Position numbers and translations under genes: made by a program. 64,000 nucleotides of DNA from Xanthomonas bromi. GTDB lineage: Bacteria; Pseudomonadota; Gammaproteobacteria; Xanthomonadales; Xanthomonadaceae. The stretch covers positions 124,001 to 188,000 of the forward strand of contig NZ_FLTX01000008.1 in the NCBI RefSeq assembly GCF_900092025.1, read 5' to 3'. The notes under the pieces were generated by a model. The model searched no databases and had not been told where the DNA came from. It saw nothing but the letters and a program-made list of their open reading frames with translations. The stretch's first letter is position 1; every line of letters begins with the position of its first letter. Shown here in pieces: positions 14,160 through 21,822 of this stretch.

Positions 14160-16381
14160 ATGCGAAAGTGCTTGAACACCGATCAATTGGCAGTCTCGGT
14201 TGCCGCCATCCTTACCACCACCCGATCCCGCCACACGCTGGCGTCGATGACCTTGTTGCTGGCCGGCGCGCAGAGCTTGCCGGCCCTGGCGCAGGACGCA
14301 CAGACGCTGGATGCGGTCAGCGTGGTGGGCACCGGCTCCACGCGCACCACCGCGTCCATCTCGGTTGACGAGATCCAGGCGCAGGTGCCCGGGGTGGCGC
14401 CGCAGCAGTTGTTGGCCAGCCTGCCCGGCGTGAATGTGCAGACCACCGACCCGTTCGGGCTGTACGAGTTCGGCGATTCGATGACGATTCGCGGGTTTTC
14501 TGCCAATCAGATCGGCGTGACGCTGGACGGCATTCCGATCGAAACCTTCGACGCCCGCGAAGGCGGGCCGATCACGCGTTACGTGTCCAGCGAAAACCTG
14601 CTCGATGTGACGGTGTCCGCCGGCTCGGGCGATGTCACCCAGCCGTCCTATCACGCACCGGGCGGCGCGATCCTCTACACCAGCCTGCCACCGAAAGGCG
14701 GCGATCGCTGGAGCGGCAATCTTACCCAGACGATCGGCTCGGACGATCTGGTGCGCAGCTTCGTGCGCCTGGATACGCCGCAATGGTGGGACGGCGGCCC
14801 CAGTGCTTATGTCTCCGCCTCGCGCACACAAGGCGGTGTCTGGGACATGCAGCCGGCCACGCAGAAAAGCGATCACTTCGAGGCCAAGATCCGTCAGGAC
14901 TGGGAGGCGGGCAGCCTGACGCTGGGCTGGATCTACAACAAGCGCAAGGACTACGACGTGCAGTCGTACAACTCCGACTGCTCGGTGTCGTGGGATATCA
15001 AGGAACGCATCACCGGCAATCCGGAGGTGGACGCCGAGCATTACAGCGAGTGGCAGAACGGCCGGCGCGATTCCTTGCTCAGCCTGCACGGCAATGTCAT
15101 GTTCAACGATGCCATCGGTGCGACCTTCACCGGCTACTACGAAAACAAGCACGGCTACGGCGTCGGCGGCACGCCGCCCAGCACCGCCACCGGCCTGTAC
15201 AACGATGCGATTGCCGGCACCCCCGGGCGGACCGATATCGCCATCAACGACCCGCAGATCGTCGATGCCAATGGCAATGTCACCCGTGTCGGTGCGATGA
15301 CGCGGCGCGAAGAAAGCATGGGCGGCGATCGCTATGGCGTCACCGCGGCAATGTCGTGGGAAACTGAACACAACAAGCTCGAAGTCGGCGCGTGGTACGA
15401 AAACTACGACTTCGATCAGGTGCGTCCTCTGTACAAGCTGGACCCTGCCACCGGCGCGCTGCTCAAGAACGCCTTGCCGATCGTGATCTATTACGACAAC
15501 CATTTCTCCACCGAGGTGAAGCAGCTCTACATCAAGGACACGCTACGTCTGCTCGATGACCGGCTCACCATGGAGTTCGGTGCCAAGGGCCTGGATGTCA
15601 AACGCGACTACAACGGCATCGCAAATCTCGATGACTTCAATGTCGGCATGCGCCGCGATGTCACCATCAAGAACAGCGACTGGTTTCAGCCGCAGGTCGG
15701 TGCGAGCTTCCAGCTGGCCGAAGGCGTGCAGGTGTTCGCCAATTACGCGGAAAACTTCAGTTCCGCGCCGCGTCTGGCGCTGATCTCCTGCGCCTTCAAC
15801 CCGGATATCGCGCCGGAAGAATCCACCACCATCGATATCGGCATCCGCGCCGAATCCACGCAATGGAGCGGCTACATCGCCGCCTACAAGATCGATTACG
15901 AAAACCGCATCATCGCGCTGACCGACCCGGACCCGCTGGTGGTGGCGCCCACCGTCTACGCCAACGTCGGCGACGTGCAGACCTTTGGTGCGGAAATCTC
16001 CGGCATGTGGAAACCGGCGCCGGGCTGGCGGCTGGGCGCATCGCTGAGCTGGAACAGGTCCGAATTCCAGGACAACTACTTCGGCCCGGTCAGCGGCAAC
16101 CTGGTGCAGGTGAAAGGCAACGACGTGCCGGACTCGTCGAAGGTCATGCTCAGCGTCAACGGCGATTGGGAAGGCGAGCATTCTTTGCTAACCTCGACAC
16201 CAATTACACCGGCAAGCGCTACGGCGACACGCCCAATACCGACCAGGTGGATGCCACCTTCATCGTCAACGGCAGCGTCGGTTACCAGGGCGAGGACACT
16301 GGGTTTCTGCCGGTGGAAGGCTGCCCGATTCTGAGTAATCGACTCGGCCGGCAGTGCAGCCGGCCGCGTGACTGTCCATGA
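14160..16381 (+). pseudogene. TonB-dependent receptor, frameshifted and 3'-truncated
   Basis: An outer-membrane receptor of the TonB-dependent class. The signal peptide (MTLLLAGAQSLPALAQ), the plug domain (VPGVAPQQLLASLPGVNVQ...; MTIRGF) and a long beta-barrel are in one frame to about codon 674. At 16179-16187 the frame breaks. The good sequence continues in the +1 frame (FANLDTNYTGKRYGDTPNTD), as if one T had been lost from TCTTTTGCT. After LPVEG (about 16320) the expected last barrel strands and the terminal aromatic residue are missing; unrelated sequence runs to a stop at 16381. So there are two lesions. It probably fed substrate to the oxidase cluster downstream. Confidence 0.85.
16346..16365 (+). 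terminator. Hairpin after the TonB receptor remnant
   Basis: A perfect GGCCGGC / GCCGGCC stem with a 6-base loop (AGTGCA), with no T-run. It was probably in the original 3' region of the receptor gene, brought close by the deletion. Confidence 0.4.
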
Positions 16382-16398
16382 CATGCGGGGGAAGTGCG

Positions 16399-18009
16399 TT
16401 GCTGCAAGGCAATCACACGGGAGCGATGACGCGGCGGCAATTGCTGGCGCGCATCGGCATGACCGCCGGCGGCGCGATGATGTATCAGGCGATGAGCAGC
16501 CTGGGCATGGCGGCCGAATCGAAATTCAACGGCCCGCTGCAACTGGATGGCGACCCCAACGGGGCCTCGGTGTTGATCCTCGGCGCCGGACTTGCCGGGA
16601 TGAGCGCGGCCTTCGAGTTGCGCAAGGCCGGCTATCGCGTGCAGCTGCTCGAATATAACGACCGGCCCGGCGGACGGAACTGGACCCTGCGCGGCGGCGA
16701 CCGCTATACCGAGTTGGGCGGCGCCACGCAGCATTGCCAGTTCGACGATGGGCTGTATCTCAATCCGGGGCCGTGGCGTATTCCGCATCACCACAAGGCG
16801 GTGCTGAGTTACTGCAAGCAATTCGGCGTGGCGCTGGAAGCCTTCAATCAGGTCAATTACAACGCACTACTGCATAGCGAAGACGGGTTCGGCGGAAAGC
16901 CGCAGCGCTTCCGCGCCATCGATGCAGATTACAAGGGCCACGTGTCCGAGTTGCTGGCCAAGTGCACGCAGCAACACGGCTTGGACAAGACCGTCAGCCG
17001 CGAAGACCAGGAGCTGCTGCTGGAATCGCTGCGTACCTGGGGGGCGCTCGATCAAAAGTTCGGTTACGTCAAAGGTAAAGACAGTAGCGAGCGGCGCGGT
17101 TTTGCGCGCTATCCCGGTGGCGGCTTGTCGGGCAAGCCCGAGTTCTCCGATCCTTTCAGCGTGCAGGACGTGCTGCGTTCGCGGTTGTGGACCACGCTGG
17201 CGGCCGGCAACAACTACGAAATGCAGACCACCATGTTCCAGCCGGTGGGCGGCATGGACCAGATCGGCAAGGCGTTCGCGCGCCAGCTTGGCGATGCCAT
17301 CACCTACCACGCCAAGGTCACCAAGATCGATCAGGACGGCAGCGGCGTGCGCGTGTCCTGGCAGGACGCCACGCGCGGCGGCGAAGAACGCGTGGCCAGT
17401 GCCGACTGGTGCATCTGCACCATTCCGTTGTCGGTGCTCAGCCGCATTCCGGTCACCGCCAGTGATGCGATGACCACCGCGATCGGCAGTGTGCCGTATG
17501 CCGCGTCGGTGAAGGTGGGCCTGCAATTCAAGCGGCGCTTCTGGGAAGAGGATGAGGCGATCTACGGTGGCATCAGCTATACCAATCTGCCGATCACCTT
17601 GATCAGCTATCCCAGCACCGGGTACCACAGCGCCGGCAAGGGCGTGCTGCTCGGTGCGTATGTGTGGGGGCTGGATGCCTATCAATTCACTTCGATGTCC
17701 CCCGAGCAGCGCGTGCGCAAGGCGGTCGAAGACGGGACGCAGCTGCATCCGCAATATCCGCGCGAATTCGAAAACGGCATTGCGGTCGGTTGGCACCGCG
17801 TGCCGTTCACGCATGGCTGCTTCGGCATGTGGAGCGAGCAGGCCCGCGCCGAGCATTACGAGCCGCTGTGCCAGATCGACGGTCGCCTGGCGCTGGCGGG
17901 CGAGCATGTGTCCTATATCCCGGCCTGGCAGGAGGGCGCGATCCTGTCGGCGCACGATGTCGTCGGCCGCCTGCATCGCAAGGTCATTGCCGGGGGAGGT
18001 CGCGCATGA
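16399..18009 (+). CDS. Tat-exported flavin monoamine oxidase family protein
   Basis: FAD-dependent amine/amino-acid oxidase of about 536 residues. The N-terminus has a twin-arginine signal, TRRQLLARIGMTAGGAMMYQ, so the folded flavoprotein should be exported to the periplasm. The dinucleotide loop is VLILGAGLAGMSAAFEL (about 57-73), then LLEYNDRPGGRNWT, and the C-terminal FAD motif LALAGEHVSYIPAWQEGA. It would oxidise an amine to an imine and pass electrons to the cytochrome or azurin encoded next to it (inference). I chose TTG 16399 because GGGGGA lies six bases upstream; ATG 16378 and ATG 16426 are alternatives. The stop overlaps the next gene (ATGA). Confidence 0.85.
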   Translation: MLQGNHTGAMTRRQLLARIGMTAGGAMMYQAMSSLGMAAESKFNGPLQLDGDPNGASVLILGAGLAGMSAAFELRKAGYRVQLLEYNDRPGGRNWTLRGGDRYTELGGATQHCQFDDGLYLNPGPWRIPHHHKAVLSYCKQFGVALEAFNQVNYNALLHSEDGFGGKPQRFRAIDADYKGHVSELLAKCTQQHGLDKTVSREDQELLLESLRTWGALDQKFGYVKGKDSSERRGFARYPGGGLSGKPEFSDPFSVQDVLRSRLWTTLAAGNNYEMQTTMFQPVGGMDQIGKAFARQLGDAITYHAKVTKIDQDGSGVRVSWQDATRGGEERVASADWCICTIPLSVLSRIPVTASDAMTTAIGSVPYAASVKVGLQFKRRFWEEDEAIYGGISYTNLPITLISYPSTGYHSAGKGVLLGAYVWGLDAYQFTSMSPEQRVRKAVEDGTQLHPQYPREFENGIAVGWHRVPFTHGCFGMWSEQARAEHYEPLCQIDGRLALAGEHVSYIPAWQEGAILSAHDVVGRLHRKVIAGGGRA

Positions 18010-18431
18010 GTCGGTTGCCACGTGTGGTTGCTGCGGCCGTTGCGCTGGTCATCGGCGCTGCGCTGCTTCCGCCCGGTCTGCGCCTTGCGCAGGCGCAAAG
18101 TTCCGACGCCACCGCGCTGTATCCGCAAAAGGGGTTCGCCACCGCATCCGGCGAGCATGTCTACCGCGCGGTCTGTCAGGGCTGCCACATGCCGACCGGC
18201 AGCGGTGCGCAGGGTGCCGGCGAATATCCGGCGCTTGCCGGGAACCCCAAGCTGGCGGCCGCGCTCTACGTCACGATGATGGTGCTCGACGGTCACGCCG
18301 GCATGCCGGGATTTGGCGACATGCTCACAGACCGTCAGGTGGCCGAGGTGGTGAGCTATGTACGCACCCATTTCGGCAACGATCATGCCGAGCGGGTCAC
18401 CGCCGAAGACGTCAAGCTGCTGCGCCACTAA
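18006..18431 (+). CDS. Exported c-type cytochrome, class I
   Basis: Periplasmic monohaem cytochrome of 141 residues. The signal peptide ends about LRLAQAQ. The haem site CQGCH is at 57-61, with a distal Met in GMPGF. It overlaps the upstream oxidase by four bases, so the two are co-translated. It is a likely electron acceptor for that oxidase (inference from context). The gene appears intact. Confidence 0.92.
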   Translation: MSRLPRVVAAAVALVIGAALLPPGLRLAQAQSSDATALYPQKGFATASGEHVYRAVCQGCHMPTGSGAQGAGEYPALAGNPKLAAALYVTMMVLDGHAGMPGFGDMLTDRQVAEVVSYVRTHFGNDHAERVTAEDVKLLRH

Positions 18432-18452
18432 TTTTCTTTTCAAGGAGTTGCC

Positions 18453-18956
18453 ATGTTCCGTCCCGCCGTCAATGCCCTCGTCGCCACCGCCGTGTTGTCT
18501 GCAGGCCTCGGCGCTGCAGATGCTGCCGAGGTGATCCGTCACAAGATTCCCAACAGCGATTTCCCCATTTCCGCAGCGGTCGAAATCCCGGCCGGCAAGG
18601 CCACCGTGTACCTCAGCGGCAAAGTGCCGGCAGTGGTGGACAGCAGTGCGCCAAAGGATTCTGCGGCCGCGTACGGCGATACCAAGGCGCAGACGGTGAG
18701 CGTGTTGAAGCAGATCCAGGACCAGCTGAAATCGCTCGGCCTGGGCATGGGCGATGTGGTGAAAATGCAGGCGTTTCTGGTCGGCGACCCGGCGATGGGC
18801 GGCAAGATGGATTTCAACGGCTTCATGGAAGGCTACCGCCAGTTCTTCGGTACCAAGGAACAGCCCAATCTGCCGGCGCGCTCGGCCTTCCAGATCGCTG
18901 CGCTGGGCAATCCGCTGCATCGCGTGGAGATCGAAGTGGTTGCCGTGCGTCCTTGA
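18453..18956 (+). CDS. Secreted RidA/YjgF-family protein
   Basis: A RidA-fold enamine/imine deaminase family member, 167 residues. Unusually, it carries an N-terminal signal peptide (AVNALVATAVLSAGLGAADA) and is therefore periplasmic. The arginine equivalent to the catalytic Arg105 of E. coli RidA is kept in PARSAF. RidA proteins hydrolyse reactive imines, which fits an amine oxidase next door. AAGGAG lies at a good distance from ATG 18453. Normal RidA is cytosolic; a second, ordinary copy is at 47036. Confidence 0.9.
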   Translation: MFRPAVNALVATAVLSAGLGAADAAEVIRHKIPNSDFPISAAVEIPAGKATVYLSGKVPAVVDSSAPKDSAAAYGDTKAQTVSVLKQIQDQLKSLGLGMGDVVKMQAFLVGDPAMGGKMDFNGFMEGYRQFFGTKEQPNLPARSAFQIAALGNPLHRVEIEVVAVRP

Positions 18957-18986
18957 ATTCGAATCGTTGCCTTGCCGGAGAGTGTT

Positions 18987-19590
18987 ATGACGACCGCCGT
19001 ATCGCGTCGCAGATTCCTGCGTGATTCCGCCCTGTTCGCCGGTGCCGCCGGGACCGGTGCATTACCGCTGCTTGCCAGTGCCGCCGAACGCACCGCTGCC
19101 ATCGCGCCAACAACCGCCGGCGCGCTGTCGCCGGTGATGATCGGCTCCGACGAGTACCCGGATGGTCCTTCCGCAGCAGCGGTCAGGGCCATTGCGCAGC
19201 TCGCACCGCAAGGCGGGCGCTATCTGCGCGATGTCCAGATGGAACTGATGACCACCCTGTCAGCCGAGCTCAAGGTGCCGGTGAATCATCTGATGGCCTA
19301 TGCCGGCTCCACCGAGCCGCTGGACTACACGATGCTGGCCTTTACTTCGCCCAGCGCGGCGCTGGTCACTGCCGACCCAACCTGCGAATCAGGTTGGCGC
19401 GCTGCCACGCGCAATGGCGCCACGTTGGTCAAGGTGCCGTTGCGCAAGGATTTTTCGCACGATGTGCAGGCGATGTGCGCGGCCGACGCCAACGCCGGCG
19501 TGATCTACATCTGCAACCCCAACAATCCCACCGGCTCGGTCACCGCACGCAAGGATCTGGACTATGCCTTGGCGCATAATCGGCCTCTCG
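18987..19590 (+). pseudogene. Tat-signal PLP aminotransferase (HisC-like), truncated
   Basis: The first half of a class I/II aminotransferase with a twin-arginine signal peptide (VSRRRFLRDSALFAGAAGTGA). The cofactor-binding segments MAYAGSTEPLDYTMLAF and IYICNPNNPTGS are present. After ...KDLDYALAHN (about 19580) the similarity stops, and the frame runs into the azurin region in a wrong frame. The half carrying the PLP-binding lysine is gone, so it cannot be active. The length would normally be about 370-400 residues; about 200 remain. GGAG precedes ATG 18987. Confidence 0.82.
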
Positions 19591-19650
19591 CTCTGCCGCA
19601 GCGTGCACCGCGCGCGATGTGCCGCAATTTTCTAACGCAGGAGTGTTTCA

Positions 19651-20100
19651 GTGAAGCTGTTTTCCACGATTGCCGTCTGTGCGCTGGCGCTGACCGCGCC
19701 TTCGGCATGGGCACGGACGTGCGCGGTGACCATCACCGGCAACGATCAAATGAAGTTCGACCAAAGCGCGATCAAGCTCGCCCCCGATTGCACGCAGGTG
19801 GAACTCACGCTGAAGCATTCGGGCAAGATGGCTGCCACGGTGATGGGGCACAACTGGGTGTTGACCAAGTCCGCTGATTTCCAGGCGGTGGCCAACGCCG
19901 GGGTACGCTCGACCCTCGCCGACAGTTATCTGCCCAAGGCCGACCCGCGCGTGATTGCGCATACCAAGGTCATCGGCGGCGGCGACAGCACCACGGTGAG
20001 CTTTCCCACCGGCCAGTTGAGCAAAGGGACCGACTACACCTTCTTCTGCTCGTTCCCCGGCCACTGGGCGATGATGAAGGGCACGCTGACATTCGGGTGA
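19651..20100 (+). CDS. Azurin (blue copper protein)
   Basis: Periplasmic type 1 copper electron carrier, 149 residues with signal peptide (MKLFSTIAVCALALTAPSAWA). The copper ligands are all there: His67 in GHNW, then Cys133, His138 and Met142 in CSFPGHWAMMKG. The start is GTG 19651 with GCAGGAG seven bases upstream. It follows directly after the deleted aminotransferase. Azurin next to a periplasmic oxidase and a cytochrome suggests it carries electrons from amine oxidation to the respiratory chain (inference). Confidence 0.95.
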   Translation: MKLFSTIAVCALALTAPSAWARTCAVTITGNDQMKFDQSAIKLAPDCTQVELTLKHSGKMAATVMGHNWVLTKSADFQAVANAGVRSTLADSYLPKADPRVIAHTKVIGGGDSTTVSFPTGQLSKGTDYTFFCSFPGHWAMMKGTLTFG

Positions 20101-20183
20101 TCCGTGCTGGCGGCCATTGCTGTGAGGTCTGGCCGCCACACTTGCGGACCTGCGTTGAACGTGGGGATGCACGCAGATCCGGC

Positions 20184-21240
20184 TCAGTCAGGGAGCGCAG
20201 CCTGCTCTGCATGCGGGTCGTTTCCACGCAATAACCCGCGCTGCAATGCCTGCGCCAGTGCGCTTTCGCGGCTGCGTGCGTCAAGCTTGCGGTACAGGTT
20301 TTTCAGATGGAATTTGACCGTATTCTCCGATGGACGCAGGCAGCGTGCGATTTGCTTGTTGGAATAGCCGCGCGCCAGTTCCGCCAGCACCTCCGGTTCG
20401 CGCTCGCTGAAGATGTCGCCGGCCGGGTCGTCGTCGCCGCTGAGGCGTTCCAGCAAGGCCTGGATGGTCAATGCACGCGTGGTGCCGCCAATGGTATGCG
20501 GATCGTGTTGGCGTAGCGAACGCAGCATCGCTTTGGCGGGCAAGCCCAATTCCACGATGGTCTGCCAGCTTTGCGTGAGTGCGACATGCTCCAGCGCGCT
20601 GTATAGATGCGGCAGGGCGGCAACCAGTTCGCCGCGTTGCTGCAGTACCAGCGCAATGCGCGCACGGGTGCGTGCCAGATGACAGGCATTGTCGTTGGCC
20701 AGGCAGGCCTGTTCGATCTGCCCAAGAATGGTCAGCGCCGCGCTGCTGCGTCCGGCCAGGCGATGCCAGCGGGCAAGCGCGAATCCAATCGCCGCGCGAT
20801 CGTGCCAGCGATGCGGCGAGCGCAACGTATGCGCCAGGCCGGATTCGCCGCCGGTGCGTGCGGGTCCTGGTCGCGGTTATGCAGTACTACGGCGCACAGC
20901 GCGTTGTCTGCGCCTGCGTTCTGCAGTGCCAGCGCAAGATGGCCGAGAAAGCGCGCGGCATCGGCATCGTCTTCGTCCAGCGACAGCCAGGCCACCGCGC
21001 CCGGGTCACGCGCACTCAGTTGCGCATGCCACTGCGCGAGCAGCGGAAGCCGGGTGGGGCAAGCAAGAGCGTCAGCGGGCGTGCCTGCGCCTGATCCAGC
21101 GCAGCCAGCAGCGCGTCACGCACCACTGCACCGGCGCGCGGCAGCTGCGGCTCCAGCTTGCCGGCAAGCAGCCAATCGGGAATAACCGGGTCGCGCGACA
21201 GTGACGGGCGCGGGGTGAGCAACGCAACAGGCTTGAGCAT
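20184..21240 (-). pseudogene. LuxR-family (MalT-like) regulator, heavily deleted
   Basis: Remnant of a large LuxR-type regulator, normally about 900 residues. The N-terminus (21240 down) keeps VVRDALLAALDQAQARPLTL and the LLLAPPGF before the Walker A site. About ten bases covering GKT/S are then missing and the frame shifts. The next fragment (AVAWLSLDEDDADAARFLGH) is in another frame. Most of the middle is deleted. The C-terminus (to 20184) keeps the helix-turn-helix SEREPEVLAELARGYSNKQIARCL...TVKFHLKNLYRKL. It probably once controlled the oxidase cluster, with which it is convergent. Confidence 0.8.
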
Positions 21241-21822
21241 GAGGCGAGAGCGACCGTATCAAGCGTCGGCAGCATGCCGGCTCGACACGCTGCAGATCGT
21301 GGTGAAACAGCGGCAATGCAGCGCGATCACCCGACTCGGCGACGACGTACAGCAACTGCTTCGAGGGTCCCCACCCATGCCCGTCCATGAGTACCTTTCA
21401 GAAATGTATGACGGCCGCGCAACAAAAGCAAAGCGTGTTACGCCGAGTTACCGACTTTCGCGCGATGGATGCGCCAGCTTGCGCGCAGGGGCAAGAACGC
21501 GCCGGTCGTCTGGCCCCAGGGGCGGCCCCACCACGGAGTGACGCCCACAGGTGTTCCTGCGACCCGTGCGGCGGCGCGTCGGCTATGACCGCGAGCAGCC
21601 CGCACCGCACGCCGTACACACGCACGGCCAAGCCCGTCAGCGATTACCGCAGCGCGGCCAGCCGCAAGGGCCTAAAGCCACTCAGGAGCGCAAAGCCGCG
21701 CTCCCATAAGGCTCCGGCAATCACCGATTCCCCATTCCCCATTCCCCATTCCCCATTCCCAATTCCCAATTCCCGATTCCCAATTCCCGATTCCCGATTC
21801 CCGATTCCCGATTCCCAGCCGC
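21241..21822. other. 582-nt gap, one tandem repeat array, no gene
   Basis: Between the regulator remnant and hemL. Only short, unsupported reading frames are seen. The last 100 bases are a GATTCCC-type array. Confidence 0.6.
21725..21817. repeat. GATTCCC tandem array, locus B
   Basis: About a dozen tandem 7-8-base units of the type GATTCCC / CATTCCCC / AATTCCC, ending six bases before the hemL stop. Unlike the other loci it has no complementary arm nearby. Confidence 0.85.

What the first reader, a model, noticed from the sequence alone, without database searches (positions are those of the whole stretch)
14160..21240. A decaying periplasmic amine-oxidation cluster with exported RidA and exported PLP aminotransferase
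Seen: a TonB receptor, a Tat-signal flavin amine oxidase, a signal-peptide cytochrome c, a signal-peptide RidA, a Tat-signal HisC-like aminotransferase, and azurin, all in one direction, with a LuxR/MalT regulator facing them. Family knowledge: amine oxidases make imines, RidA hydrolyses imines, and cytochrome and azurin carry electrons. Inference: a complete periplasmic pathway that imports an amine across the outer membrane, oxidises it, detoxifies the imine and feeds electrons to respiration. Periplasmic RidA and a Tat-exported aminotransferase are unusual. Three of the seven genes are broken here.
Basis: partly seen in the sequence, partly recalled or inferred. Interest (0 to 1): 0.85.

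Follow-up and report, generated by a model that had tools for sequence, protein, structure and literature searches.

The report
Decaying periplasmic amino-acid deamination cluster
A plant-associated bacterium carries a half-broken copy of a gene cluster that, in many of its relatives, appears to strip the amino group from amino acids outside the inner membrane and pass the electrons to respiration; the core trio is known elsewhere, but the added exported transaminase is a little-studied extension.

Summary
In detail: TonB receptor, Tat-signal flavoenzyme, cytochrome c, exported Rid protein, Tat-signal PLP transaminase and azurin run in one direction, a LuxR/MalT-type regulator faces them, and three genes (receptor, transaminase, regulator) are broken. 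All seven genes are open, in this order, in 24 of 34 same-genus genomes examined and in one Stenotrophomonas. The interpretation needs correction. The flavoenzyme is an L-amino acid oxidase relative (best fold 2JAE), not a general amine oxidase; its Tat signal plus adjacent cytochrome c fit the cytochrome-c-using dehydrogenases described in 2025. The 'RidA' is an exported Rid3. The core trio lao-cccA-ridA is published (Gluconacetobacter; Xanthomonas named there), and a periplasmic oxidase with a Rid partner is known in Chlamydomonas. New here: in 84 of 88 other loci with a Rid gene nearby the Rid carries a signal, and the four exceptions sit beside an oxidase with a worn Tat region; one clade has a diheme cytochrome instead; and the Xanthomonas/Stenotrophomonas/Pseudoxanthomonas version adds a PtaA-like exported transaminase. 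Azurin is not an obligatory partner. Best mechanism: periplasmic respiratory deamination of L-amino acids. Transaminase-fed 'transdeamination' is the boldest reading not excluded.

The parts
14160..16334 (+). TonB-dependent outer-membrane receptor, broken at the 3' end (frameshift plus loss of about 120-140 bp)
   Evidence: 764-aa open copies in relatives; TIGR01783 only below cut-off
16426..18009 (+). [quoted passage not shown]
18006..18431 (+). c-type cytochrome with signal-like N-terminus (CQGCH), overlaps the oxidase gene by 4 bp, open
18453..18956 (+). Rid3-type imine/enamine deaminase with signal-like N-terminus, open
18987..19577 (+). remnant of a Tat-signal PtaA-like PLP transaminase; the second half, with the PLP lysine, is lost
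19651..20100 (+). azurin (GTG start), open; possibly a separate unit
20184..21240 (-). remnants of a MalT-like LuxR-type regulator (GerE domain kept; about 1.7 kb lost inside)

Best explanation
The cluster is a Xanthomonadaceae version of the lao-cccA-ridA operon. The Tat-exported flavoenzyme oxidises free L-amino acids in the periplasm to 2-imino acids and hands electrons to the cytochrome c encoded next to it, hence to the respiratory chain, rather than mainly to oxygen. The exported Rid3 protein hydrolyses the imine to a 2-oxo acid and ammonium before it reacts with other molecules. The TonB receptor probably brings in the amino-acid-bearing substrate (free, peptide or chelate), and the MalT-like regulator probably controls the operon. 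In intact relatives a Tat-exported PtaA-like transaminase works in the same compartment on the 2-oxo acids or amino acids of this pathway. In this genome the uptake, transaminase and control genes are broken while the oxidase-cytochrome-Rid core is still open. Shown: gene content, order, conservation, signals, motifs, predicted fold. Inferred: reaction, electron acceptor, substrate class. Guessed: parts played by receptor, regulator and transaminase.
For: Oxidase: closest solved sequence is Rhodococcus opacus L-amino acid oxidase (E 1e-94); the predicted model (mean pLDDT 90.4) has TM 0.95 (target-normalised) to 2JAE, and the first 43 rows of the Foldseek list are L-amino, L-glutamate or L-lysine oxidases before the first monoamine oxidase. 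R118 of GPWRIP and Y412 of GAY are invariant in 20 of 20 diverse homologues; they align with R. opacus residues whose carboxylate-binding role I recall. Acceptor: a homologous cytochrome c lies 1.3-2.6 kb after the oxidase start in 98 of 124 unique non-Xanthomonas loci; in 3 more (L079, L082, L084) a gene with two CXXCH motifs lies between oxidase and Rid, a Pfam cytochrome c in the one scanned, L084. PMC12224317 (abstract, passages): Tat signal plus adjacent CytC predicts cytochrome-c-using dehydrogenases. Imine step: catalytic Arg in 117 of 117 Rid proteins or pieces, Rid3's Ile in 115; Rid3 proteins hydrolyse imines made by an L-amino acid oxidase (PMC5619798, passages). Compartment: 84 of 88 Rid genes in range carry a signal by a hydropathy test; the 4 without (L085, L086, L195, L196) sit beside an oxidase whose Tat region is broken by charges, with no cytochrome found, one clade (SH-aLRT 100). 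Substrate: M20 peptidases in 20 of 109 loci, 17 adjacent; the two I read, L104 and L106, begin with signal-like stretches. Precedent: Gluconacetobacter lao insertions remove IAA formation from tryptophan (PMC5053998, abstract, passages; the insertions also lowered cccA and ridA transcripts).
Against: No activity, localisation or expression was measured. The named loci were found with a profile made mostly from cytochrome-bearing homologues, and the best 80 of at least 588 were kept, so 98 of 124 is not an unbiased frequency. 23 of 124 have neither kind of cytochrome gene (two of them, L077 and L080, have a lone CXXCH in another same-strand frame, not examined) and may use oxygen. 12 of the 20 M20-bearing loci are Bradyrhizobium. 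The compartment rule has one independent exception only, and my automatic Tat test passed the four exceptions; the broken region was judged by eye. The residue at R. opacus Trp426 (recalled numbering) is Phe here, so side-chain preference cannot be carried over. The receptor's ligand is unknown; its weak solved relatives are mostly siderophore receptors, also a PQQ one.
Confidence: 0.75

Rival explanations
1. The flavoenzyme is a true periplasmic oxidase (oxygen acceptor, making hydrogen peroxide) and the cytochrome serves another purpose, such as peroxide removal.
For: The nearest solved enzyme is an oxidase. Homologues with Tat motif and Rid but no cytochrome found exist, e.g. L076, L083, L087; PMC12224317 (passages) reports that most Tat-bearing enzymes tested without a nearby CytC are fast with oxygen.
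Against: Here and in 98 of 124 other loci a homologous cytochrome follows, and a two-heme-motif gene stands in its place in one clade.
Confidence: 0.15
2. The pathway is for making a product, not for catabolism: aromatic 2-oxo acids such as indole-3-pyruvate (towards the auxin IAA), as in Gluconacetobacter and Chlamydomonas.
For: lao mutants of Gluconacetobacter lose IAA (PMC5053998, abstract and passages); Chlamydomonas LAO1 is needed for IAA from tryptophan (PMC10805672, passages).
Against: None of the seven conserved genes looks like a decarboxylase; M20 peptidases beside some homologues suggest broad amino-acid use. The first step is the same, so this rival overlaps with the best explanation.
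Confidence: 0.2
3. Receptor and transaminase form their own module: the receptor imports a siderophore or peptide and the PtaA-like transaminase edits its amino group in the periplasm, as PtaA does with pyoverdine; the lao core is only a neighbour.
For: Receptor resembles siderophore receptors (TIGR01783, 121 bits, below cut-off). Receptor and transaminase are both broken or missing, with the core open, in this window, in G018 and in G007 (in G007 the receptor side is a contig end, and no receptor match beyond 58 bp was found elsewhere). 15 of 15 other PtaA-like genes examined have none of the cluster genes within about 1.5 kb. G029 matches the transaminase but not the oxidase.
Against: Transaminase follows Rid by 27-30 bp in 24 of 24 intact loci and follows it in Pseudoxanthomonas too (L149). 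A related receptor sits by oxidase and cytochrome in Hydrocarboniphaga with no transaminase hit (L147, L159). Joint loss is not strict: G027 has a damaged transaminase with an open receptor, G011 a split receptor with a transaminase that passes the coverage test.
Confidence: 0.25

Closest known systems
lao-cccA-ridA cluster of Gluconacetobacter diazotrophicus (PMC5053998, abstract and passages)
   Same: [quoted passage not shown] the paper names Xanthomonas species and Caulobacter crescentus as sharing the organisation
   Different: In the passages I saw, no transaminase, azurin, receptor or MalT-like regulator; I did not fetch the Gluconacetobacter sequences for a direct comparison
Cytochrome-c-using flavoprotein amine dehydrogenases, NicA2/CycN and others (PMC12224317, abstract and passages)
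   Same: Tat-exported flavoenzyme with an adjacent Sec-exported cytochrome c gene
   Different: Found there with NicA2 as query; this one belongs to the L-amino acid oxidase branch and has a Rid partner; the paper's main text has no hit for 'Rid' or 'L-amino acid'
Rid3 subfamily, PSPTO_3006 and PFL_1385 (PMC5619798, PMC4433059, passages)
   Same: Best solved relatives of the Rid here; same Arg, Glu and Ile pattern; Rid3 genes are reported to cluster with FAD amine oxidases
   Different: Signal-bearing here; the two papers' main texts have no hit for 'periplasm'
Periplasmic transaminase PtaA, and PvdN, of Pseudomonas (PMC6206403, passages)
   Same: Tat-exported PLP enzymes of the periplasm; the PtaA model is the second-best NCBIfam match
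   Different: Below the PtaA cut-off (395 against 500 bits) and encoded beside an amino acid oxidase
Chlamydomonas LAO1 with LAO2/RidA (PMC10805672, passages)
   Same: Periplasmic L-amino acid oxidase with a Rid partner, giving ammonium and 2-oxo acids
   Different: Eukaryote; makes hydrogen peroxide; no cytochrome partner mentioned in the passages I saw

Membership tests
L-amino acid oxidase branch of the flavin amine oxidases | PF01593 domain and closest fold among L-amino acid oxidases | tested here: met
L-amino acid oxidase branch of the flavin amine oxidases | Carboxylate-binding Arg (R. opacus Arg84; role and number recalled) conserved | tested here: met
   R118 invariant in 20 of 20; alignment
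L-amino acid oxidase branch of the flavin amine oxidases | Oxidises L-amino acids | not testable with these tools
   needs an enzyme assay
Cytochrome-c-using FAO dehydrogenase (PMC12224317) | Tat signal on the flavoenzyme | tested here: met
   MTRRQLL motif with uncharged stretch; no signal-peptide program was run
Cytochrome-c-using FAO dehydrogenase (PMC12224317) | Adjacent cytochrome c gene with signal peptide | tested here: met
   signal judged by eye
Cytochrome-c-using FAO dehydrogenase (PMC12224317) | Slow with oxygen, fast with its own cytochrome | not testable with these tools
   needs kinetics
lao-cccA-ridA cluster | The three genes adjacent, one direction | tested here: met
lao-cccA-ridA cluster | Direct sequence kinship with GDI2454-GDI2456 | not tested
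   those sequences were not fetched
lao-cccA-ridA cluster | Needed for IAA from tryptophan | not testable with these tools
   phenotype
Rid3 subfamily | Catalytic Arg and Glu kept, Tyr replaced by Ile | tested here: met
   window has all three; 117, 115 and 115 of 117 fetched Rid proteins or pieces; criteria from PMC4433059 passages
PtaA (NCBIfam NF051461) | Score over curated cut-off of 500 bits | tested here: not met
   395 bits for the intact relative L023; 145 bits for the window frame
PRK09105 transaminase subfamily (NF006580) | Score over curated cut-off of 444 bits | tested here: met
   met by the intact relative L023, 586 bits; the truncated window frame is below it, 246 bits
Azurin (TIGR02695) | Score over cut-off | tested here: met
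   191 against 105 bits; in relatives GHN and CSFPGHWxM motifs in 30 of 30 fetched loci with the gene (ligand roles recalled)
TonB-dependent siderophore receptor (TIGR01783) | Score over cut-off of 223.5 bits | tested here: not met
   121 bits for the intact relative, 87 for the window frame
MalT (NF003420) | Score over cut-off of 537 bits | tested here: not met
   302 bits for the intact relative

The most novel reading that the evidence does not exclude
In Xanthomonas, Stenotrophomonas and Pseudoxanthomonas the exported transaminase turns the lao core into a periplasmic transdeamination cycle: it moves amino groups from many amino acids onto the 2-oxo acid made by the oxidase-Rid pair, so that one respiratory dehydrogenase can deaminate many amino acids outside the inner membrane, the periplasmic counterpart of transaminase plus glutamate dehydrogenase. 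This would give PtaA-like enzymes a job outside siderophore tailoring. Against it: G018 keeps the core without a transaminase, G029 matches the transaminase without the core, and elsewhere PtaA-like genes were not found beside the oxidase.
Probability: 0.22. Interest if true: 0.7.

Novelty: new variant of a known kind. Interest (0 to 1): 0.5.

Why it matters
It ties three separate literatures together (IAA-forming lao clusters, cytochrome-using flavin amine dehydrogenases, Rid imine deaminases) and adds an exported transaminase. A pyoverdine review notes that PtaA also occurs in species that cannot make pyoverdine and suggests other periplasmic pathways for it (PMC6206403, passage); this cluster offers a concrete, testable setting. 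If right, imine removal and transamination are periplasmic metabolism, with energy gained from amino acids without first taking them into the cytoplasm.

Tried and rejected
Rejected: that the cluster is a chance neighbourhood (24 of 34 same-genus genomes pass); that the oxidase is an amine enzyme of the monoamine, putrescine or nicotine kind; that azurin is the needed acceptor (outside Xanthomonas only L051 has it among the fetched loci; G012 and G029 match azurin but not the oxidase; it starts 90-365 bp behind the transaminase in 24 intact loci, against 27-30 bp between Rid and transaminase). The receptor frame gave no solved relative by phmmer; a profile of intact relatives gave 18 partial hits, mostly siderophore receptors and also a PQQ transporter. 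No sigma-70-like promoter, and one terminator-like site against 1.8 expected in shuffles, in L023 5500-8000. PtaA-like genes elsewhere, 15 loci (L179-L193), show none of the other cluster genes within about 1.5 kb, which counts against a general transaminase-oxidase link. My Tat test called the four cytosolic-Rid loci 'Tat-positive' because a 10-residue uncharged stretch passed; their region is interrupted by charges by eye. The same test failed L066, L128 and L129 (L066 has KR for RR; L128 and L129 were not looked into), and L055. A first clustering put 24 loci in one M20 group by chaining; direct matching at E 1e-10 gives 20 of 109, which I use. The Rid motif check used a wrong pattern and found nothing; one search replaces it. 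One search aligned the wrong pair and was not used. Rows dropped before counts: duplicates (same oxidase core sequence) and loci under 250 bits; all but nine fetched Xanthomonas loci in the tree. In one search all fetched Xanthomonas loci with the gene, damaged ones and L051 included, entered the rates; codons with gaps or stops, pairs with dS of 0.05 or less, and pairs under 200 bases were left out.
Full report
What is there. The window lies in a draft genome of 4.84 Mb in 133 contigs. Its genus is Xanthomonas: the same-genus genome G028 has contig C8 of 1,867,660 bases, the size of the named record of Xanthomonas sp. Leaf148 (L166), and the positions agree. Between genes that I take for argD and a HAD hydrolase on one side and hemL on the other (argD and hemL are recalled names; HAD is) lie, on the plus strand, a TonB-dependent receptor (14160-16334), a flavoenzyme (16426-18009), a cytochrome c (18006-18431), a Rid protein (18453-18956), a transaminase remnant (18987 to about 19577) and azurin (19651-20100); a LuxR-type regulator in pieces faces them (20184-21240). 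Oxidase and cytochrome genes overlap by 4 bp.

Decay. Against four relatives the receptor lacks about 120-140 bp at its 3' end behind a frameshift, the transaminase about 750 bp with its PLP lysine, and the regulator about 1.7 kb. Median dN/dS of window pairs is 0.06 (oxidase), 0.15 (cytochrome), 0.12 (Rid) and 0.12 (azurin), against 0.06, 0.13, 0.07 and 0.11 among relatives: still constrained, slightly higher in three of four, so I infer that the breakage is recent. Of 34 same-genus genomes, 29 have the oxidase at 89-96% identity. By a coverage test all seven genes are open in 24. G006 is split over contigs (the receptor part on another contig) and was not counted. Damaged: G027 (transaminase), G011 (receptor, oxidase, Rid, regulator), G007 (transaminase; receptor missing, and regulator not on the 8-kb contig), G018 (receptor and transaminase absent). 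G012 matches only Rid with the cytochrome's end, and azurin; G029 the transaminase, azurin and the receptor's first 90 bases; G022, G023 and G032 show only weak matches, 68-399 query bases long (the regulator was not in that query). Loss is thus repeated in the genus and piecemeal.

What the oxidase is. The closest solved sequence is Rhodococcus opacus L-amino acid oxidase. The predicted model (pLDDT 90.4) matches 2JAE with TM 0.95 by the target's length, 0.87 by the query's, 1.8 A; the first 43 rows listed are L-amino-acid-type oxidases. R118 (GPWRIP) and Y412 (GAY) are invariant in a diverse set of 20; that they correspond to the R. opacus carboxylate ligands Arg84 and Tyr371 is from the alignment plus recalled numbering. 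The position of its Trp426 is Phe here. The own genome has one match to this protein at E 1e-3 or better.

The wider family. In 398 genomes spread over the phylum, 27 (own included) have a homologue at E 1e-60 or better; in 369 of the class, 6 (own included). One scan of named genomes gave at least 588 relatives, of which 80 were kept. After removing duplicates, 153 loci over 250 bits remained, 124 of them not Xanthomonas. Of the 124, 98 have a homologous cytochrome 1.3-2.6 kb after the oxidase start, 3 (L079, L082, L084) a gene with two CXXCH motifs there (a Pfam cytochrome c in L084; the other two are its BLAST kin), and 23 neither (L077 and L080 have a lone CXXCH in another frame, not examined). 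A Rid is in range in 88, on the same strand 1.4-2.9 kb after the oxidase start in 81; 84 carry a signal by a hydropathy test. They form one clade (SH-aLRT 100); cytochrome presence needs 3 changes on a quick tree of 134 rows, which warns of several long branches. So exported oxidase and exported Rid go together, with a single independent exception in this sample. The 98 of 124 leans towards cytochrome-bearing copies because the search profile was built from them.

The Rid. It is Rid3 by the criteria of PMC4433059 (passages read): Arg in 117 of 117 fetched Rid proteins or pieces, Glu in 115, Ile in 115, and its best solved relatives are the Rid3 proteins PSPTO_3006 and PFL_1385, which hydrolyse imines from L-amino acid oxidase (PMC5619798, passages). 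The own genome has four PF01042 genes; one is in the cluster.

Neighbours that speak to the substrate. TonB receptors match in 28 of 109 loci with gene lists, over 21 genus names or codes; 22 are adjacent by my rule (same strand, starting 1.5-3.6 kb after the oxidase start, or ending up to about 1.7 kb upstream on either strand). Receptor-rich genomes will give some by chance, and no chance rate was computed. In Hydrocarboniphaga (L147, L159) the receptor is 40-42% identical to that of L023. M20 peptidases match in 20 of 109, 17 adjacent, 12 of the 20 in Bradyrhizobium. A peptidase and an uptake receptor fit amino acids better than free amines; this is inference.

The transaminase. One intact relative (L023) scores 586 bits against a cut-off of 444 for PRK09105 and 395 against 500 for PtaA; 29 of 31 loci examined have the FSKLYG motif. 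In 398 genomes of the phylum, 14 (own included) have a relative at E 1e-60; the 15 loci other than the window's own, one of them a paralogue in the own genome, show none of the other cluster genes within about 1.5 kb. I infer a late addition in one family.

Mechanism and rivals. The best reading is periplasmic respiratory deamination of L-amino acids. Shown are gene order, conservation, signals, motifs and predicted fold; reaction and acceptor are inferred from families; uptake, control and the transaminase's part are guesses. PMC12224317 (abstract and passages) supports the cytochrome step by analogy; PMC5053998 (abstract and passages) gives genetic evidence for such a trio, with loss of IAA formation, and already lists Xanthomonas. 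PMC10805672 (passages) has a periplasmic oxidase with a Rid partner in an alga. PMC9368920 (passages) mentions a predicted Fur box before a gene set that includes lao in Gluconacetobacter. PMC9714295 (passages) shows a Rid that acts on the imine from D-alanine and matters in competition, though not in monoculture. The transaminase could instead belong to a receptor module that edits an imported compound, as PtaA does (PMC6206403, passages).

In print or not. The searches in the held open-access library listed no paper that, from its title and abstract, joins this oxidase cluster with a periplasmic transaminase or azurin; I opened eight papers in part, and subscription papers are mostly not held.

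Noticed in passing
window 21724-21816: Thirteen-copy tandem array of a 7-bp unit (CCGATTC) between the regulator remnant and hemL.
   Followed up: no
window 20846-20862: The ends of the regulator's internal loss overlap by 14-17 bp in alignments with three of four relatives, as expected if a short direct repeat took part.
   Followed up: partly
G000:C86:38026-39129 (L192): A second PtaA-like transaminase, 47% identical to that of L023 and open, lies elsewhere in the same genome with none of the cluster genes within about 1.5 kb.
   Followed up: partly
L052/L160: Stenotrophomonas sp. MMGLT7 has a second oxidase-cytochrome pair with a divergent signal-bearing Rid gene upstream.
   Followed up: no
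L066: One genome (G214) has two oppositely oriented oxidase-cytochrome units about 1.4 kb apart between the oxidase ends, one with a Rid.
   Followed up: no
L085, L086, L195, L196: Pseudomonadaceae oxidases whose Tat signal looks worn out, with a Rid that lacks a signal peptide: perhaps a move of the pathway into the cytoplasm.
   Followed up: partly
L079, L082, L084: A gene with two CXXCH motifs stands where other loci have the monoheme cytochrome.
   Followed up: partly
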